Assembly: GCF_018140925.1 (NCBI RefSeq) | Contig: NZ_CP073315.1 | Coordinates: 1,612,001-1,676,000, forward strand | Length of the DNA: 64,000 nt | Source of the DNA: Psychrobacillus sp. INOP01 | GTDB taxonomy: Bacteria; Bacillota; Bacilli; Bacillales_A; Planococcaceae | Direction: 5' to 3' | Shown: positions 1 to 63,490 of the stretch, one piece after another | Layout: each line of letters starts with the position of its first letter | Position numbering within the stretch: the stretch's first letter is position 1 | Position numbers and translations under genes: made by a program | Notes under the pieces: model-generated | The model's input: only the letters and a program-made list of their open reading frames with translations | The model's database searches: none | What the model was told of the DNA's origin: nothing

Positions 1-3380
<3,380 letters not shown>

Positions 3381-3475
3381 AGAGAACTTAAAAAGCTCAT
3401 TTGTTTTGCTGGCATCATCATTAAATGATGTCAAAATTGTTTTGCTATCAAACTAACAAAGTTAGTCGATAAGCT

Positions 3476-3514
3476 GTATGTCTTAACGTTTTGCATGTTC
3501 AGTTTTCAATGTTC
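3476..3514 (-). other. Upstream arm of the pre-16S processing stem
   Basis: In the transcript this leader segment pairs over about 36 bases, with few mismatches, with the spacer segment at 1758-1793 on the other side of 16S. This is the usual arrangement of a 16S processing stalk cut by RNase III. Confidence 0.7.
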
Positions 3515-3529
3515 AATAGTATTAAATAA

Positions 3530-3603
3530 TGGAGCGGGTGAAGAGAATCGAACTCTCATCATCAGCTTGGAAGGCTGAGGTTTTACCACTAAACTACACC
3601 CGC
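3530..3603 (-). tRNA. tRNA-Gly(TCC)
   Basis: The reverse complement folds as a 74-nt cloverleaf with anticodon TCC in the loop CTTCCAA. The 3' CCA is encoded. It is the last tRNA before 16S rRNA in the operon. Confidence 0.95.
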
Positions 3604-3631
3604 ATTTAATTATGTTAAATTGTTATGTGAC

Positions 3632-3718
<87 letters not shown>

Positions 3719-3782
3719 TTAGTAATTAATAGGACAAGGTTGATTATACTCTCTTACACCTTAAATGTCAATAACAATTTGA

Positions 3783-3855
3783 TGAGCCATGTAGGATTCG
3801 AACCTACGACCCTCTGATTAAAAGTCAGATGCTCTACCAACTGAGCTAATGGCTC
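3783..3855 (-). tRNA. tRNA-Lys(TTT)
   Basis: A 73-nt cloverleaf with acceptor GAGCCAT paired to ATGGCTC and anticodon loop CTTTTAA. CCA is not encoded and must be added enzymatically. Confidence 0.95.
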
Positions 3856-3860
3856 AAAAA

Positions 3861-3935
3861 TGGCTGGGGTACCTGGATTCGAACCAGGGCATGATGGAAT
3901 CAAAATCCATTGCCTTACCGCTTGGCTATACCCCA
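3861..3935 (-). tRNA. tRNA-Gln(TTG)
   Basis: A 75-nt cloverleaf with acceptor TGGGGTA, anticodon loop TTTTGAT giving TTG, and encoded GCCA at the 3' end. Confidence 0.95.
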
Positions 3936-3938
3936 ACA

Positions 3939-4014
3939 TGGCGGTCCCGACCGGGATCGAACCGGCGATCTCCTGCGTGACAGGCAGGCATGTTAACCGC
4001 TACACCACGGGACC
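3939..4014 (-). tRNA. tRNA-Asp(GTC)
   Basis: A 76-nt cloverleaf with acceptor GGTCCCG paired to CGGGACC, anticodon loop TGTCACG giving GTC, and encoded CCA. Confidence 0.95.
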
Positions 4015-4042
4015 GTTAAAGATATGAATTTATAAATGGTAA

Positions 4043-4114
4043 TGACCCCTACGGGATTCGAACCCGTGTTACCGCCGTGAAAGGGCGGTGTCTTAACCGC
4101 TTGACCAAGGGGCC
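4043..4114 (-). tRNA. tRNA-Glu(TTC)
   Basis: A 72-nt cloverleaf with anticodon loop CTTTCAC giving TTC and discriminator A. CCA is not encoded directly after the discriminator. Confidence 0.95.
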
Positions 4115-4118
4115 ATAA

Positions 4119-4193
4119 TGGCTCCGAAGGTAGGACTCGAACCTACGACCAATCGATTAACAGTCGATTGCTCTACCACTGAGCTACTTCGGA
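4119..4193 (-). tRNA. tRNA-Asn(GTT)
   Basis: A 75-nt cloverleaf with acceptor TCCGAAG paired to CTTCGGA, anticodon loop CTGTTAA giving GTT, and encoded CCA. It is the first gene of the tRNA-rRNA transcription unit. Confidence 0.95.
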
Positions 4194-15690: not shown

Positions 15691-16317
15691 ATGTTTAGTA
15701 GAACAGAAAATTTTAAACAATACATAAAACTATATCCAGTTGTTTCTTCACTGCTCGCATTAAATATAGTTATTCACTTGTTAACTTTGGTTCCAATACT
15801 TGGATCGCAACTTTTTAATTTTGGCGTTCATTTCAACTTATTAATCAGTGAGGGGGAATACTGGCGTTTACTAACTCCTATATTCTTGCACGCTAACTTT
15901 GCTCATTTATTATTTAATATGTTTTCTTTATACATATTTGGACCAGAGTTGGAGCAATTAGCTGGGAAAGCTCGTTTCCTTACTATCTATATACTAGCGG
16001 GATTAGTCGGTAATATTGCCACATACTTACTGCAGGACTGGAATTATACGAGTGTCGGGGCTAGTGGCGCGATTTATGGTATATTCGGTGCTTTTGGGGC
16101 TTTAGTATATTATACGAGAAATTTCATGCCACAGCTAAAACAAATCATTATTCCGATTATTGTCATTGGTGTCATTATGACATTCTTACAGCCACAGATT
16201 AATGTTACTGCCCATATTGCAGGGTTAATAACCGGTTTTATACTTGGAATGGTTTACTTCCACCCAAAACGGATTGCCGCATGGAAAAAACGTAAACGTA
16301 AGCTTAAATCTGTGTAA
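15691..16317 (+). CDS. ydcA: Rhomboid-family intramembrane serine protease
   Basis: This 208-residue protein has six predicted membrane segments and the rhomboid catalytic pair: Ser125 in GASGAIYG and His175 in TAHIAG, with the oxyanion-region motif HLLFN (His72, Asn76). It is shorter than YqgP-type rhomboids and resembles YdcA. Substrates are unknown. It is the only plus-strand gene in the conserved block. Confidence 0.93.
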   Translation: MFSRTENFKQYIKLYPVVSSLLALNIVIHLLTLVPILGSQLFNFGVHFNLLISEGEYWRLLTPIFLHANFAHLLFNMFSLYIFGPELEQLAGKARFLTIYILAGLVGNIATYLLQDWNYTSVGASGAIYGIFGAFGALVYYTRNFMPQLKQIIIPIIVIGVIMTFLQPQINVTAHIAGLITGFILGMVYFHPKRIAAWKKRKRKLKSV

Positions 16318-16325
16318 CATAATAG

Positions 16326-16356
16326 AGACCGGGCAAAAAAGATGCCCGGTCCTTTT
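16326..16356 (+). terminator. Intrinsic terminator of the rhomboid gene
   Basis: The stem GACCGGGC/GCCCGGTC is followed by CTTTT. A similar hairpin follows the MFS gene at 47,055. Confidence 0.8.
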
Positions 16357-16364
16357 AGTTCAAA

Positions 16365-16895
16365 ACTTGTTTCTAGCGTTTTCAGTAGGCTCTGAACAGA
16401 CTTTTGGCTACATTATTATCGATTGATTTTTTGGAGTTGCTGGTCGTGACTAACGTCACGACCAGCAACTCTTTTCTCGGTAATCTTATCGCGTTGTCTG
16501 TCCGTCGCCCTCCTACAACTTTAGGAACTGGTTTAGTGCATTCTTATCTAATGAAAGAAACGATACTTTCTAATCCATAAGATAAGCTCACGAAGATGCA
16601 ATTTCGTTCGCTATTTCGCTTCTTTATTTGGTAAACACTTACTATTCCTTTATATTTCCACTTCTAATTCAGATAGCTATTACAGGAGATCTAATCCTAT
16701 TATCTTAGCGATAAGCTATGCTAATTCCTCCCGATAGGTACTAATCACTTTATTAATTGAAGTGAAAGGCGACGACTCCGGAGGGATCATTGAGACTGAC
16801 GGAACTTCACAACGAAAGCGAAGCGGCGGTGAAGGTTCATCGCTCACACCTCAGAAAGCGTCCGCCTGAAACGGAAATCAATACACTTTCTAATC
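16365..16895 (+). repeat. Composite intergenic repeat, copy 1 (~530 bp)
   Basis: This near full-length copy of a repeat also occurs at 47,745-48,345, with partial copies at 42,093 and 63,195. Its parts, in order, are: a left end TTTCTAGCGTTTTCAGTAGG; a 17-bp perfect hairpin with TAAC loop at 16434-16471 followed by CTCTTTTCTCGGTAATCTTAT; a middle block containing AAGATGCAATTTCGTTCGCT; and a right module with GGCGACGACTCCGGAGGGAT and GCGTCCGCCTGAAACGGAAA. The outer ends form an imperfect inverted repeat (CGTTTTCAG with CTGAAACG). No protein is encoded. Confidence 0.85.
16434..16471 (+). other. Conserved hairpin of composite repeat, copy 1
   Basis: A 17-bp perfect stem (GAGTTGCTGGTCGTGAC with its complement) closes a TAAC loop and is followed by CTCTTTTCTC. 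The stem sequence differs from the copies at 42,159 and 47,819, yet the 47,819 stem is also perfect. Confidence 0.85.
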
Positions 16896-16902
16896 TTCAA
16901 AA

Positions 16903-16936
16903 AAGAACAGCCACTACAAAGGCTGTTCTTTTTCTA
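16903..16936 (-). terminator. Intrinsic terminator of ydbS-ydbT
   Basis: The minus strand has the stem GAACAGCC/GGCTGTTC followed by TTTTTTGAAG. The 5' arm lies in the last codons of ydbT. A T-rich tract on both sides would let it act in both directions. Confidence 0.85.
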
Positions 16937-18422
16937 TATCTATAGGTTCTATTCTAGCTGGTTCATACCATTCCATTAGACTTTCTGCATCAGTTTTTTC
17001 AATATGCTGGATAGTAGTAGCCGATCCAGACACACCAGACTTGATAGTAGTCATAATAGAAGAAACGTCTGCTTTTTTTTGAAAATACGTAGTACGTTCT
17101 GTCATTGCCTGAATACGTTTCTTTTCCATCCATATAGATACTCTACTAAATAGGCGATACTGCACAACTAGCTGTTTTTCATCCATCCAAAATCCAGCAG
17201 TCTTGTGCTGCCATGCCCCAAATAGAAAGCTTAGCGGAAATAGTAATAGAGAGAACAATCCAAACGGATAAAAGAAATAACTAACAACTGCCGCCACTGG
17301 TATCATCCACAAGAAATCTAAACGATAGAAAAACTTTCTAGAGCGCTTCGGAACTCGTGTAAAACTAGGTTCAAAGTCGTAATTAGGAAAGATTTGAACG
17401 AGAATAGGATTAATTTGGTCCTTTTTAATAAGAGGGATTAATCTAATTTTCTCGTCCTTCTCAGCTAAAGACCCCCCAGCACTGTCAACGATGACTGTCG
17501 CGTGCCCTGTAAGCTGACGTAGCGGATTTTCTACAATACGTACTCCTTGTATACGAGATAAAGGAATTGTAATCTTTTTCTTTTCGAGTAATCCTCTAGT
17601 TATTATGATTTCCTCATCTTCTACCCGAATAGTAAACTCATAGTAATTAATAAAAGTAATCGCCACTGATACAATCCAAGCAACAAGTAGTACAAAGAAT
17701 ACAGATAAAGCGATTAAGAGCGCCCCAAACCTGATAAACATAATAATTTCATTATAAATAGTTTCGTATGGGATTAATTCCGAGAATTGCGAGACAAACA
17801 CAGCTAAACCCGAGAAAAAGACACCTACTCCCCCAGATGTACTAGCGAGAATGAGTAAGTCCTTTTGTGACATACGGAACAAAGGCTTTCGTTGTTCTAT
17901 TACCTGATCTTCTAGTTGAAGCGTTTCATCAAGCATATCTGATTGCTTATTTTTGGCGAAATTCATTTCTTTTTTTATTTGTTCGGCTGCTTCTTTGGAA
18001 ATTGCTGTCAATTCTGCATCCGCCTCTTTAGTTGCTCCCCCACCAGCCGTTTCTACCTTCACCTTTACTAACCCGAATGGTCTATGAAAGATACCCTCCG
18101 TGTAATTTAAGCTTTGAATGCGCTCAAATGGGATATATCTTTTTTTCTTCACGAAAAGACCATATTCAATGCGGAGCTCTTCCTCTTCGAACCAGTAACG
18201 AAATCTTTTCCATTTAATAATTCCGCTAACCAACATTGCGACTAATACTACTGCATAAATAATATAGATTATATAGGAGCTCCAGCCATCAGAGTCCCTA
18301 CCTCCTCCAAATCCATTTACTGCAATGACTACAACTAATGGAACAATCATTTCTTTTAATACTTTTACAAAGTTAATAACTGCAGATATAGGATGTAAAG
18401 TAAATTTTTCTTTAGACATCAT
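16914..18422 (-). CDS. ydbT: PH-domain (bPH2) membrane protein, YdbT type
   Basis: This ~502-residue protein has repeated units of paired membrane segments followed by bacterial PH-like (DUF304/bPH2) domains; FVKKKRYIPFERIQSLNYTE, LLEKKKITIPLSRIQGVRIV and RVSIWMEKKRIQAMTE mark three of them. The start ATG at 18422 overlaps the ydbS stop by about 11 bp. B. subtilis YdbS and YdbT are paired membrane proteins reported to give resistance to some bacteriocins such as amylocyclicin. That link comes from memory of the family, not from this sequence. Confidence 0.88.
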   Translation of the reverse strand: MMSKEKFTLHPISAVINFVKVLKEMIVPLVVVIAVNGFGGGRDSDGWSSYIIYIIYAVVLVAMLVSGIIKWKRFRYWFEEEELRIEYGLFVKKKRYIPFERIQSLNYTEGIFHRPFGLVKVKVETAGGGATKEADAELTAISKEAAEQIKKEMNFAKNKQSDMLDETLQLEDQVIEQRKPLFRMSQKDLLILASTSGGVGVFFSGLAVFVSQFSELIPYETIYNEIIMFIRFGALLIALSVFFVLLVAWIVSVAITFINYYEFTIRVEDEEIIITRGLLEKKKITIPLSRIQGVRIVENPLRQLTGHATVIVDSAGGSLAEKDEKIRLIPLIKKDQINPILVQIFPNYDFEPSFTRVPKRSRKFFYRLDFLWMIPVAAVVSYFFYPFGLFSLLLFPLSFLFGAWQHKTAGFWMDEKQLVVQYRLFSRVSIWMEKKRIQAMTERTTYFQKKADVSSIMTTIKSGVSGSATTIQHIEKTDAESLMEWYEPARIEPIDIEKEQPL

Positions 18423-18891
18423 CTTCCGCCACCCTTGCAAGTACAGAAATTCTGCCTCGAAGTTCATCTGCCTCTGAAGTTATGAGTGCAGGAATTGTAT
18501 GACTAGTTGCAGCAGTCGAAATAGTAATCGACGATAAATCATACTTTCTCAAAATAGGTCCCTGTTCTGTATCTACATGCTGTACACGAACCATTGGCAC
18601 AAGCGTTCTTTTGACGATAAACAAACCATGTTGCAATTCGATTTCTTGTTCACGCACTTCGTATCTCCAACGAGTCCATCTAATTTTCGGAAATAAATAA
18701 ATTAATAAATATCCAACGAGTAATATCACTACTCCATCTACTATGTATAGCCATATATATTCCCCTGTGAAATAATTGATAACCCCTACTCCAATACCTA
18801 CTAGTAAGGCAATTAAGGATTGAAATATTCCATAAATTCTCCATACACGTAACCCTTTTTCAGATAACCGATTGATTGGTTCTTGTCTCAT
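18412..18891 (-). CDS. ydbS: PH-domain membrane protein, YdbS type
   Basis: This 159-residue protein has two adjacent membrane segments (about residues 20-65) and one C-terminal bPH2 domain (FIVKRTLVPMVRVQHVDTEQ). It is translationally coupled to ydbT, and the two probably form one membrane complex. It follows cshA on the same strand, but a terminator and repeat lie between. Confidence 0.88.
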   Translation of the reverse strand: MRQEPINRLSEKGLRVWRIYGIFQSLIALLVGIGVGVINYFTGEYIWLYIVDGVVILLVGYLLIYLFPKIRWTRWRYEVREQEIELQHGLFIVKRTLVPMVRVQHVDTEQGPILRKYDLSSITISTAATSHTIPALITSEADELRGRISVLARVAEDDV

Positions 18892-27170: not shown

Positions 27171-27184
27171 GGTGGGACAGGATA

Positions 27185-27372
27185 AGAAAAAACGGGCCGT
27201 TGATTTCCGCTCCGAGCGGACGCTTTCCGTGGGCACGGCTTCAGCCGCTTCCTGCGCTCCAATCAACAAACGTTCCATTTATAAAACGGATAAAGCAGGA
27301 TTATTGATTCTGGAGAGTTCCGTGAACCCAGTTTTCACGGTACATTTTTATATACTTTATTCCCTTTTTAAA
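27185..27372 (-). repeat. Interspersed repeat, reversed right module plus tail
   Basis: Read on the minus strand, 27190-27270 matches the right module of the composite repeats, including CGGAAAGCGTCCGCTCGG, with AATCAAC/GTTGATT ends that can pair. It is followed at 27318-27372 by a tail containing TTTTCACGGTACATTTTTAT and a TTTAAAAAAAG end. The same module-tail order occurs at 47,100-47,240. Confidence 0.7.
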
Positions 27373-38976: not shown

Positions 38977-39011
38977 CAAAAAAGCCGCCCTTTAAAGGAC
39001 AGCTTTTTTAT
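38977..39011 (-). terminator. Intrinsic terminator of tcyP
   Basis: The minus strand has AAGCTGTCCTTT/AAAGGGCGGCTT followed by TTTTGTATTT, directly after the tcyP stop. Confidence 0.85.
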
Positions 39012-42039: not shown

Positions 42040-42055
42040 TAAAACTATGACTTAT

Positions 42056-42080
42056 AAGAAAAGCGGATGCGCCCTTTTAA
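42056..42080 (+). repeat. Fragment of the AAAAGCG...GCGCC REP-like element
   Basis: GAAAAGCGGATGCGCCCTTT resembles the start of the elements at 19,172 (minus) and 43,622, but the rest of the element is missing. Confidence 0.4.
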
Positions 42081-42092
42081 GTTAAAAACCTA

Positions 42093-42235
42093 ATTTGTAT
42101 CGTTTTCGGAGAACTTTGTACAGGCTTGCTGCTATATTATTACCGACTGATTTTTTTAAGAGGCTGGTCGTGACTGACGTCACAACCTGTCTCTCTTTTT
42201 TCGGTAATCTTATGGCGTTTGTCTCGTTAGGATAT
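42093..42235 (+). repeat. Composite intergenic repeat, copy 3 (left part only)
   Basis: It begins TTGTATCGTTTTCGGAGAA, contains the hairpin at 42159-42194 with loop TGAC, and runs to TCGGTAATCTTATGGCGTTT. ATTACCGA before the hairpin pairs with TCGGTAAT after it. The middle block and right module are absent. Confidence 0.75.
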
Positions 42236-42283
42236 GCTAAATCTTCTGATTCAAGACACAAAATTTTATACTTACTTCTCTCA

Positions 42284-47049: not shown

Positions 47050-47054
47050 TAAGA

Positions 47055-47085
47055 AAAACCGGGCAAAAGACGCCTGGTCCTTTAA
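47055..47085 (+). terminator. Intrinsic terminator of the MFS gene
   Basis: The stem ACCGGGC/GCCTGGT (one G-U pair) is followed by CCTTTAAG. It is nearly the same hairpin as the one at 16,326. Confidence 0.65.
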
Positions 47086-47099
47086 GAACAGAAACATAG

Positions 47100-47240
47100 A
47101 TATGCCGTTAATTTCCGCTCCGGGCGGACGCTTTCGGTGCAGAAAACATTTGCTGTTCCCACTGGAGTCGCCGCCCTGCACTCCAATCAACCCAAGAAAC
47201 CAGTGTTCACCGGACATTTTCATATAATGTCTTTAAAAAA
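47100..47240 (-). repeat. Interspersed repeat, reversed right module plus tail
   Basis: Read on the minus strand, 47105-47195 matches the right module (GCGTCCGCCCGGAGCGGAAA and GTTGATTGGAGTGC ends). A tail with CAGTGTTCACCGGACATTTT and CTTTAAAAAAC follows, as at 27,318 and 58,640. Confidence 0.7.
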
Positions 47241-47680: not shown

Positions 47681-47744
47681 CTATTAAACAAACTAATTTT
47701 GAGAGAGATTTAAGTATTAAAAAAAGTGAAAATAACCTTTAGGT

Positions 47745-48345
47745 CAAAATCTGTTTCTATCGTTTTCAGTGGGCTTTGGACAGATCTGTTGCAATAATAT
47801 GACCGGTTTATTTTTCACAGAGGCTTCTCATGACTAACGTCATGAGAAGCCTCTCTTTTTTCAGTAATCTTATACGGTTAGTCTCTCCGTAGCCCTCTTA
47901 CAAAAACTCAAAACAGATTTAACATATTTATGGGAAGAAGGGAAGAAATTCTTTCCTACACATAGAGTAAGCGCCCGAAGATACAATTTCGGTCGCTACT
48001 CTCCTTCTCTATTGGATAGCTACTCACTATTTCTTTATAACTCCACTACTATATGAAAATTTCAGCAGAATTTATAAAGGATAATAGCATCCCTTCGATG
48101 ATTTCAGGATGATTTTTCCTTACATTATATTAAATTAATTCTTTATCTTGGCGATATGCTACGCAAATCTTATCGTTGAGTACTGCTCCCTTAGTTGATT
48201 GTAGTGGAAGGTGGCGACTCCGGCGGGATGAGTGAGACAGATGAGACGTCACAACGAAGCGTAGCTCGGTGACGGCTCATCGCTCACCCCGCGGAATGCG
48301 TCCGCCTGAAACGAAAATCAGCAGTGTTTATTGACTAGATTTTAA
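47745..48345 (+). repeat. Composite intergenic repeat, copy 2 (~600 bp)
   Basis: This is the longest copy. In order it has: the left end TTTCTATCGTTTTCAGTGGG; a 16-bp perfect hairpin with TAAC loop (47819-47854) followed by CTTTTTTCAGTAATCTTAT; the middle block with AAGATACAATTTCGGTCGCT and GGCGATATGCTACGC; and the right module with GGCGACTCCGGCGGGAT and TGCGTCCGCCTGAAACGAAA. It lies between two divergent genes. It aligns with 16,365-16,895 along its whole length but is about 70 bp longer in the middle. Confidence 0.85.
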
Positions 48346-48529
48346 TCTTCAAAATATCGGCAACACTACAATTATGGCAGCGAAAATTTATACTTTGTTG
48401 TTCTGTAAAAGAATAGTTTTTCCATTTTATATTACATTTTGATTTCTAATTGATTTTAATTCTATATATTTGTAGAAGATTATAGTTATTTTTGTTATGA
48501 TTACAAAAAGAATTCAGAGGTGATTTCAA

Positions 48530-58534: not shown

Positions 58535-58589
58535 GTTTTTTTAGATTCTATTCATAGCTTTTGTTCCTGTATGTTTTAAAAAATGAGCA

Positions 58590-58690
58590 ATAAACGCGTG
58601 AGCGATGGCGGTGGTTCATCGCTAACTCCGTGGAACGCGTCCAGTGTTCACGGTACTTTTTAATATACTCTCTTATCTTTAAAAAAAGAA
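58590..58690 (+). repeat. Interspersed repeat fragment with tail
   Basis: GCGATGGCGGTGGTTCATCG and GTGGAACGCGTCC match part of the right module of the composite repeats. The segment then joins CAGTGTTCACGGTAC and a TCTTTAAAAAAAG end, the tail also seen at 27,318 and 47,205. Confidence 0.6.
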
Positions 58691-63153: not shown

Positions 63154-63194
63154 TATTAGAAATTCACCTTCCAATAATATTCTCGTATAGCACA

Positions 63195-63425
63195 AAAGCT
63201 GTTTCTATCGTTTCCAAAGTGCTTTGGAGATTTGTAGCTTATTATTAACAGTTAATTTTTGGAAATAAAAGATGTAAAAACTTCTAATAATAAATCTACT
63301 TACTAACTCATAAAATGGCTGTATTTAAATCTTGAGAAACACTTACACCATTGATTGCAGTGGATGGCGGTGAAGGTTCCTCTCTCCCCCCGTGGAAAGC
63401 GTCCGCCTGAAAAGGAAATCAGCAA
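63195..63425 (+). repeat. Composite intergenic repeat, copy 4 (internally deleted)
   Basis: The left end (GCTGTTTCTATCGTTTCC) and the right module (TTGATTGCAGTGGATGGCGG to GCGTCCGCCTGAAAAGGAAA) are present, separated by only ~130 nt. The conserved hairpin and most of the middle are missing. The region between murB and the acylase gene holds nothing else I can identify. Confidence 0.7.
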
Positions 63426-63490
63426 TATCGCTTTATTCTTTAAAGTACTATGAACACTCGTTTCCACACAATACCCTTATAATTTCTTAA

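What the first reader, a model, noticed from the sequence alone, without database searches (positions are those of the whole stretch)
16365..16895. Composite ~530-600 bp intergenic repeat with a structure-conserving hairpin
Two near full-length copies (16365-16895 and 47745-48345) and two partial ones (42093-42235, 63195-63425) share a fixed order of modules but encode no protein. The hairpin stem differs in sequence between 16434 and 47819 but stays perfectly paired with the same TAAC loop, i.e. paired substitutions. In the copy at 42159 an additional outer pairing ATTACCGA/TCGGTAAT is visible. The ends form an imperfect inverted repeat (CGTTTTCAG with CTGAAACG). This fits a structured RNA or a non-autonomous mobile element with a built-in terminator-like hairpin. 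The covariation is seen directly; the role is inference.
Basis: partly seen in the sequence, partly recalled or inferred. Interest (0 to 1): 0.72.

Follow-up and report, generated by a model that had tools for sequence, protein, structure and literature searches.

The report
Mobile hairpin elements landing behind terminators
In a cold-tolerant bacterium (Psychrobacillus) this repeat turns out to be one of about a hundred non-coding DNA elements, built of hairpins and apparently mobile, that settle right behind the stop signals of genes and nearly all point the same way relative to DNA replication.

Summary
The repeat is real and much larger than the two copies seen. A covariance model of its 5' part finds 97 copies in this 4.30-Mb genome, matches in all 19 Psychrobacillus genomes searched, and in 17 genomes of two other genera of the family. 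Young copies in P. antarcticus show the true ends: TAAGAAAA...CGCCCGG (hairpin) and ...TATATACTTTCTTATCTTT, 431-972 bp apart. Occupied/empty sites show insertion without visible target duplication. The 3' end abuts an intrinsic terminator on its U-tract side: a strict hairpin follows 24 of 41 ends, against 0.65 in shuffles and 0 of 41 at 5' ends. Orientation follows replication (56 of 59 good copies), also between convergent genes (37 of 44). No long ORF, no group II domain, and in this genome no IS605-type TnpA was found. Best reading: a non-autonomous, modular element moved as single-stranded DNA on the lagging-strand template (like a PATE of IS200/IS605), with the target choice of group IIC introns. 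Mobility and target are well supported; enzyme and intermediate are inference. No transcript evidence was available.

The parts
16320..16898 (+). Full copy of the element (the finding); 5' end TAATAGAGACCGGGC just after the stop codon of the ORF 15691-16317, 3' end CTAATCTTC
   Evidence: end motifs defined on P. antarcticus copies, read in the window; flanks nearly joined in G015, G013, G009, G017 and G010
16327..16351 (+). 5' subterminal hairpin GACCGGGC-AAAAAAGAT-GCCCGGTC
   Evidence: sequence
16359..16539 (+). 5' module: ~175-nt quasi-palindrome that can fold as one arm
   Evidence: profile hit; consensus fold and pair counts; only the tip part in RNAalifold
16434..16471 (+). Tip hairpin with TAAC loop, followed by a T-run (terminator-like in + sense)
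   Evidence: helix 8: 95% of cells paired, 8 of 12 pairs with a change on both sides
16756..16880 (+). 3' cassette GGCGACTCC...GGAAAGCGTCC(G/A)CCTGAAACGGAAATCA, a hairpin with imperfect inverted ends; also found without the 5' module and in another repeat of a relative
16899..16933 (.). Target: terminator-like hairpin AAAAAAGAACAGCC...GGCTGTTCTTTTT at the end of the convergent ORF 16914-18467 (-); it overlaps that ORF's stop codon
   Evidence: sequence and ORF list
27183..27367 (+). Degraded copy without 5' module, both ends kept, followed by an imperfect hairpin (not found by the strict test)
   Evidence: 3'-end profile hit, sequence
42055..42282 (+). Partial copy: 5' end and 5' module, internal deletion, degenerate 3' end, then hairpin AAAAAAAGTGGTTTCC...GGAAACCACTTTTTT
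47050..47234 (+). Short copy without 5' module, both ends kept, followed by hairpin AAAAAACAGGAATG...CATTCCTGTTTTT
47717..48349 (+). Full copy; G004 and G007 have no trace of it, G008 keeps a 3' remnant and G005 a 5' remnant; no clear hairpin after its 3' end
58588..58680 (+). 3' remnant of a copy followed by hairpin AAAAAAAGAAAAACGCTTATC...GATAAGCGTTTCTC
63193..63489 (+). Decayed copy (5' end lost), 3' end followed by hairpin AAAAAAACCCATGAATA...TATTCATGGG

Best explanation
The repeat is a copy of a non-coding, non-autonomous mobile element of about 0.4-1.0 kb. It inserts without visible target-site duplication at the U-tract side of intrinsic terminators. Read in the sense of the gene whose terminator it follows: gene - stem - TTTTT | AAAGATAAGAAAGTATATA - hairpin - cassettes - 175-nt arm - GGACCGGGC(GTTTTTT)GCCCGGTTTTTCTTA |. 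Most likely mechanism: a nicking-rejoining enzyme of the HUH/Y1 kind, supplied in trans, recognises the subterminal hairpins on one strand. It moves the element as single-stranded DNA into the exposed lagging-strand template, 3' of the T-run, as in IS200/IS605 and their PATEs. The element ends in its own hairpin plus T-run, so each copy offers a fresh target, which explains head-to-tail tandems. Shown: dispersed copies, occupied/empty sites, no duplication at the junctions read, terminator adjacency, orientation bias, conserved hairpins, no long ORF. Inferred: that the intermediate is ssDNA, the class of enzyme, and that the hairpins act at DNA level.
For: 97 non-overlapping 5' modules in the own genome. 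Origin at dnaA, 2.14 Mb, in line with the GC skew of the fetched fragments. Orientation fits one rule per replichore in 85 of 97 with the boundary at dnaA, and in 56 of 59 with 100 bits or more. ORFs of 150 aa or more in the fetched fragments are co-directional in 233 of 321; against that rate binomial p is 1.2e-5 for 56 of 59 and 2.9e-4 for 85 of 97. Between convergent genes, a symmetric setting, 37 of 44. Strict hairpin right after the 3' end in 24 of 41 against a mean of 0.65 in shuffles; 0 of 41 before 5' ends. No target duplication visible at the three occupied/empty comparisons that can be read at the base: site C, L194 (five empty relatives) and L283 (one). Tandem copies at the element's own 5' hairpin, at least five by eye. 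Less bias among degraded copies (24 of 31 under 100 bits against 56 of 59) speaks for bias at insertion. Subterminal hairpins at both ends, closer at one end, as described for PATEs (PMC3119063, passages). Longest ATG ORF 85 aa in 19 elements. 29 of 47 young copies have both ends by profile, 35 the 5' and 34 the 3' end, without a one-sided truncation pattern.
Against: No IS200/IS605-type TnpA was found: the only Y1 match of this genome is RAYT-like (54 bits against NCBIfam's cut-off of 80). Y1 presence does not track the element: G002, which has copies, has none, and G028, G125, G126, G211, G226 and G246 have copies but are not among the matches. No autonomous copy with a gene was seen. A short inverted match TAAGAAA/TTTCTTA exists near the ends. 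Five of 41 3' ends have no hairpin or second element beside them (by eye). At two of the polymorphic sites remnants in relatives leave room for loss instead of insertion. Duplications of up to about 3 bp cannot be excluded between diverged relatives. RNAalifold does not predict the lower arm. The strand test by G-U against A-C pairs was inconclusive.
Confidence: 0.55

Rival explanations
1. SINE-like retroelement: the RNA of the element (leading-strand sense), which ends at its own terminator U-tract, is reverse transcribed into terminator sites by a group IIC intron type machinery using lagging-strand primers.
For: Same target and sense as group II introns of the genus (RF02001/RF01998 type, which I take for group IIC), whose first bases GTGC follow a T-run in the five loci read. 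Class C introns are inserted right after rho-independent terminators and are strongly strand-biased (PMC8919778, passages); group IIC proteins lack the endonuclease and use lagging strands (PMC10190682, passages). The element's boundary coincides with the expected RNA 3' end.
Against: No group II domain in five young elements at E up to 1. The own genome's only RVT_1 match is a retron-like RT (my reading). Three genus genomes with copies (G001, G016, G018) have no RVT_1 match. No one-sided truncation pattern.
Confidence: 0.2
2. Classical MITE of a DDE transposase whose short terminal repeats and target duplication have eroded or are unusual; terminator adjacency reflects target preference plus purifying selection.
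For: TAAGAAA/TTTCTTA near the ends; nesting as in other bacterial MITE clusters (PMC10969869, passages).
Against: No duplication at the junctions read; orientation bias in symmetric convergent settings is not expected of double-strand insertion.
Confidence: 0.12
3. A functional structured RNA or 3' regulatory element, kept and moved for the host (terminator, 3' UTR, sRNA).
For: Covariation and a very stable consensus fold; terminator-like hairpins at both ends and in the tip.
Against: Occupancy differs widely between relatives at the same site, copies decay, cassettes swap. Conserved gene neighbours were not looked for copy by copy. No transcript data were available.
Confidence: 0.1
4. Not mobile: hairpin-rich spacer that evolves by local duplication, loss and quasi-palindrome correction between old copies.
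For: Several relatives carry different forms or remnants at the same site.
Against: P. antarcticus copies in unrelated places are very alike (17 of 20 have a neighbour at 95% or more) with the same ends, and their sites are empty in relatives.
Confidence: 0.03

Closest known systems
PATEs (palindrome-associated transposable elements, related to IS605-type transposons)
   Same: no coding capacity, palindromes close to both ends at unequal distance, no target duplication, short targeting sequence at one end; definition read in PMC3119063 (passages)
   Different: terminator hairpin as target, ~175-nt arm and exchangeable cassettes inside, no IS605-type TnpA found in this genome
Group IIC (bacterial class C) introns
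   Same: insertion right after rho-independent terminators, in the sense of the terminated gene, strand bias
   Different: no ribozyme domains, no GTGCG start, no intron-encoded protein
BOX / RUP / SPRITE repeats of Streptococcus pneumoniae
   Same: repeats, one of them terminator-like, that cluster and insert into one another (PMC10969869, passages)
   Different: no replication-strand rule in the passages read; sequences not compared here
Bacillus cereus group repeats bcr1-bcr18
   Same: 100-400 bp interspersed repeats, bcr1 up to 130 copies (PMC6542083, passages)
   Different: restricted to the B. cereus group, mobility tied to a TTTAT motif; no link to terminators in the passages read; sequences not compared here
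REP/REPIN with RAYT
   Same: intergenic palindromes; Y1 matches, one to three per genome, in 18 of 19 genus genomes, RAYT-like where tested
   Different: of 19 Y1 loci scanned only one has the element nearby; six have a GGTGCC(T/A)GGCAC palindrome upstream instead (by eye)

Membership tests
PATE of IS200/IS605 | Palindromes close to both termini | tested here: met
   CCGGGC...GCCCGG about 9 nt from one end; GTACC(R)TGAACAC...GTTCATGGTAC about 25 nt from the other
PATE of IS200/IS605 | No target-site duplication | tested here: met
   three comparisons readable at the base: site C, L194 and L283; 1-3 bp cannot be excluded
PATE of IS200/IS605 | No terminal inverted repeats | tested here: inconclusive
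   TAAGAAA at the 5' end, TTTCTTA 4-5 nt inside the 3' end
PATE of IS200/IS605 | Ends shared with an IS605-type transposon, or TnpA in the genome | tested here: not met
   own genome: one Y1 match only, RAYT-like; TnpB was not searched; not filed as a PATE for this reason
Group IIC intron | Insertion right after an intrinsic terminator | tested here: met
   24 of 41 strict hairpins, shuffles 0.65
Group IIC intron | Ribozyme domains (D1-D4, DV) | tested here: not met
   no group II family in five elements at E up to 1, while RF02001/RF01998/RF02005/RF00029 ring in introns of the genus
Group IIC intron | Starts GTGCG, own reverse transcriptase | tested here: not met
   element starts AAAGATAAG in that sense; no long ORF
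MITE (DDE) | Terminal inverted repeats and target duplication | tested here: not met
   only a 7-nt inverted match and no duplication at three sites
REP/REPIN | RAYT gene flanked by the repeat | tested here: not met
   profiles hit one Y1 locus of 19 (G008), about 1 kb away, with the middle and 3' parts only
Rfam families | Match at gathering score | tested here: not met
   window: only rRNA and tRNA; RF01690 in five relatives' copies is an inserted cassette
Structured RNA | Transcript | not testable with these tools
   no RNA-seq

The most novel reading that the evidence does not exclude
A class of bacterial elements without any enzyme gene of their own that hop from terminator to terminator, carrying their own landing pad: either a bacterial SINE copied through RNA by intron-type machinery, or a single-stranded DNA element that uses lagging-strand synthesis and a host or borrowed nickase. 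In both cases transcription terminators and replication direction would decide where it goes.
Probability: 0.2. Interest if true: 0.85.

Novelty: new variant of a known kind. Interest (0 to 1): 0.6.

Why it matters
Terminator targeting with a replication-strand rule is known from group IIC introns. Finding the same target choice in elements with no ribozyme and no transposase gene suggests that terminator hairpins on the lagging-strand template are a general safe harbour for selfish DNA. It gives a natural test system (about 100 copies in the window's genome, many very similar copies in P. antarcticus) for how non-autonomous elements are moved. It also suggests that Rfam's Bacillaceae-1 RNA travels as a mobile cassette.

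Tried and rejected
RNA function from covariation alone: not accepted, since hairpin DNA and palindrome correction give the same signal. RNAalifold on the alignment of 34 modules predicted 18 pairs (tip region and one small hairpin); the long arm rests on the fold of the majority consensus and on the pair counts, in which the lower helices are 77-90% paired and helix 1 has both-side changes in only 2 of 12 pairs. G-U against A-C test for the folded strand: among 60 pairs with a Watson-Crick majority 169 G-U and 241 A-C cells on the + strand, but 5 further pairs are mostly wobble on that strand; inconclusive. RAYT as mover: 18 of 19 Y1 loci scanned lack the element. Group II RT as mover: no RVT_1 match in three genomes with copies. 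Search for an autonomous copy through the 3' end: none seen, but at most 40 candidates per genome were scored and most places were not opened. Orientation explained by gene direction alone: disfavoured at the level, with the caveat that my gene calls are simple ORF calls in fragments chosen around the elements; 11 of 90 modules overlap such an ORF call. Literature: listings show no paper that describes this repeat; I saw titles and starts of abstracts there, and passages of seven papers; only the open PMC library was searched.

Errors of mine: one search aligned minus-strand loci without turning them (replaced); one search translated the Y1 genes one base off, its profile scan being unaffected (corrected). 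score only 40 candidates each and list pieces, not copies. The 97 modules come from 127 matches (E up to 0.01) after dropping overlaps; seven weak ones lacked flanks and were left out (90 used). The replichore boundary was first fitted (86 of 97); with dnaA it is 85 of 97. The 0.65 uses mononucleotide shuffles. Hairpins beyond the 24 strict ones were judged by eye.

Full report
What was checked. The window is G000:C1:1612001-1676000 of a 4,301,978-base chromosome. The named records that hold a conserved 24-base piece of the repeat are all Psychrobacillus (17 stretches, four strains). Rfam finds only rRNA and tRNA in the window at gathering score.

Extent of the family. BLAST with the two window copies gives 62 and 54 matching pieces in the own genome (only 40 candidates scored each). 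A covariance model built from 34 copies of the 5' module gives 127 matches, 97 after removing overlaps, which are mostly the reverse strand of the same palindrome. It hits all 19 genomes of the genus, and in the family 36 of 261: the 19, plus 6 of one and 11 of another genus; the 16 other genera have none (stricter filters and few candidates per genome there, so weak copies may be missed).

Structure. The majority consensus of the 5' module folds as a single arm, -97 kcal/mol with RNA parameters. On 34 copies 84.9% of cells pair, 26 of 66 pairs have a change on both sides (shuffles 16.2, SD 2.7), and sliding the partner by 1-3 columns drops pairing to 37-49%. The tip helix is 95% paired, with 8 of 12 pairs changed on both sides; the lower helices are 77-90% paired and covary less. 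RNAalifold on the same alignment predicts only 18 pairs, essentially the tip. On 96 modules from several genomes, 239 compensated cells against 91 (SD 7, maximum 111) in 200 shuffles. Relatedness of copies inflates such numbers. RNA, ssDNA hairpins and palindrome correction at replication can all produce this.

True ends. In P. antarcticus, 47 copies were read. By profile 35 carry the 5' end TAAGAAAAACCGGGCAAAAAAACGCCCGGTCC and 34 the 3' end TATTTTTATATACTTTCTTATCTTT, 29 both. Eleven measured copies span 431-972 bp. These copies are young: 20 modules have a median pairwise identity of 0.93 and 17 have a neighbour at 95% or more, against 0.76 and 2 of 48 in the window's genome. The interior is modular: copies with both ends but without the 175-nt arm exist, and the GGCGACTCC...GGAAAGCG cassette occurs inside another outer repeat of G004 and in either orientation. 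Five young elements carry Rfam RF01690 Bacillaceae-1 as a ~67-nt cassette. In 19 elements the longest ATG ORF is 85 aa.

Occupied and empty sites. At the finding's site the flanks are nearly joined (5-32 bp apart) in G015, G013, G009, G017 and G010, while G004, G007, G008, G014 and others hold different forms. The copy at 47.7 kb leaves no trace in G004 and G007, but G008 keeps a 3' and G005 a 5' remnant, so part of these differences may be losses. At window 38988-39003 the window is empty where G004 and G007 hold copies and G008, G014 and G005 hold other forms: AAATA|CAAAAAAGCC in the window against AAATA|AGAAAAACC...CTTATCTTT|CAAAAAAGC in G007. The L194 site of G007 is empty in five relatives and the L283 site in one. 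Site C, L194 and L283 can be read at the base and no duplication is seen; 1-3 bp cannot be excluded. The L276 site is contiguous but diverged in G000.

Target. Right of the 3' end in P. antarcticus stands an A-run plus stem, as of a terminator of the gene that reads toward the element (by eye 8 of 11 clear, two imperfect, one without). In the own genome a profile of the 3' end finds 41 ends in the fetched fragments. A strict hairpin follows in 24; shuffled flanks give 0.65 on average and the flanks before 5' ends give 0 of 41. By eye seven more have imperfect or long-loop hairpins, five run into the start of a second element, and five have neither. Six of the seven window copies abut such a hairpin by eye, one of them imperfect; the 47.7-kb copy does not. 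Head-to-tail tandems have the junction CTTATCTTT|TAAGAAAA (at least five by eye): the element's own 5' hairpin, read from the other side, is a terminator-like target.

Replication. dnaA lies at 2,143,703, and the GC skew of the fetched fragments changes sign near there and at the contig ends, so the origin is near 2.14 Mb. The strand that begins with the 5' hairpin is antisense to leading-strand genes in 85 of 97 copies, and in 56 of 59 with 100 bits or more. ORFs of 150 aa or more in the fetched fragments follow the leading strand in 233 of 321 (p 1.2e-5 for 56 of 59). Between convergent genes, where gene direction cannot decide, 37 of 44 follow the rule (p 5e-6). Of 90 copies with flanks, 75 have a gene reading toward their 3' side. 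All 10 exceptions to the strand rule among them have their upstream gene in the same sense. Degraded copies obey less often (24 of 31 against 56 of 59), as expected if the rule acts at insertion. Of the 41 3' ends 37 obey.

Mechanism. Absence of duplication, one-strand target, lagging-strand template orientation and subterminal hairpins fit single-strand transposition. IS605 is described as inserting 3' of a short sequence, without duplication, with a lagging-strand template bias, although that paper's own 22 elements showed no strand preference (PMC7290912, passages). PATEs are described as lacking inverted repeats and duplications and having near-terminal palindromes (PMC3119063, passages). 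The same target and sense are used by group IIC introns, in the literature (PMC8919778 and PMC10190682, passages) and, as I read them, by introns of this genus: four of the five loci read start GTGCG and one GTGCC after a T-run (the label IIC is mine). The strand labels of PMC8919778 are ambiguous to me, so I take from it only that the bias exists. Five young elements show no group II domain, and no long ORF was seen. The genome's Y1 match is RAYT-like and its RT match is retron-like by my reading. Neither family tracks the element across genomes. The mover is therefore unknown; the ssDNA route is my preferred inference, not a result.

Verdict. A real, unusual family: a terminator-targeting, replication-oriented, modular, non-autonomous element. 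It works like a PATE with the landing rule of a group IIC intron. I file it in neither family because a defining feature of each was tested and not met.

Noticed in passing
L283 2212-2278, L194 567-633, L268 1303-1369, L190 294-360, L185 1253-1320: Rfam RF01690 Bacillaceae-1 RNA sits inside five young elements as a ~67-nt cassette (52-75 bits; e.g. ...CCAACATCCTGTTGG), which suggests that this orphan RNA family is mobile.
   Followed up: partly
L245-L263 (19 Y1 loci of 18 genomes): RAYT-like Y1 proteins, one to three per genome; about eleven of the 19 loci look syntenic by their downstream sequence, and six have a GGTGCC(T/A)GGCAC palindrome upstream, a possible REP of their own (by eye).
   Followed up: partly
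L199, L200, L201, L202, L215: Group II introns of Psychrobacillus start GTGCG (GTGCC in L199) directly after a T-run; in L199 a complete terminator hairpin precedes it.
   Followed up: yes
G004 sites B and C (loci L230, L231): Another repeat, GGGACAGAAGTAG...GGTTCTGTCCCAG, carries the same GGCGACTCC...GGAAAGCG core as the 3' cassette.
   Followed up: no
L264 1615-2535 and 2853-4796 (own genome 1.47 Mb): Reverse transcriptase next to a large AAA/OLD-like ATPase gene, looks like a retron-type defence locus (my reading, no family search run).
   Followed up: no
window 1-4193: rRNA genes and seven tRNA genes on the minus strand, as expected for the leading strand on this side of the origin.
   Followed up: no
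G007 loci such as L179, L181, L186, L188: A further cassette (GATGACAGTCTAAGTACGCGACATCGTGGTGCTCCTGCGCAAAGCTCGTCGC...) is inserted in several copies at about the same place of the middle region.
   Followed up: no
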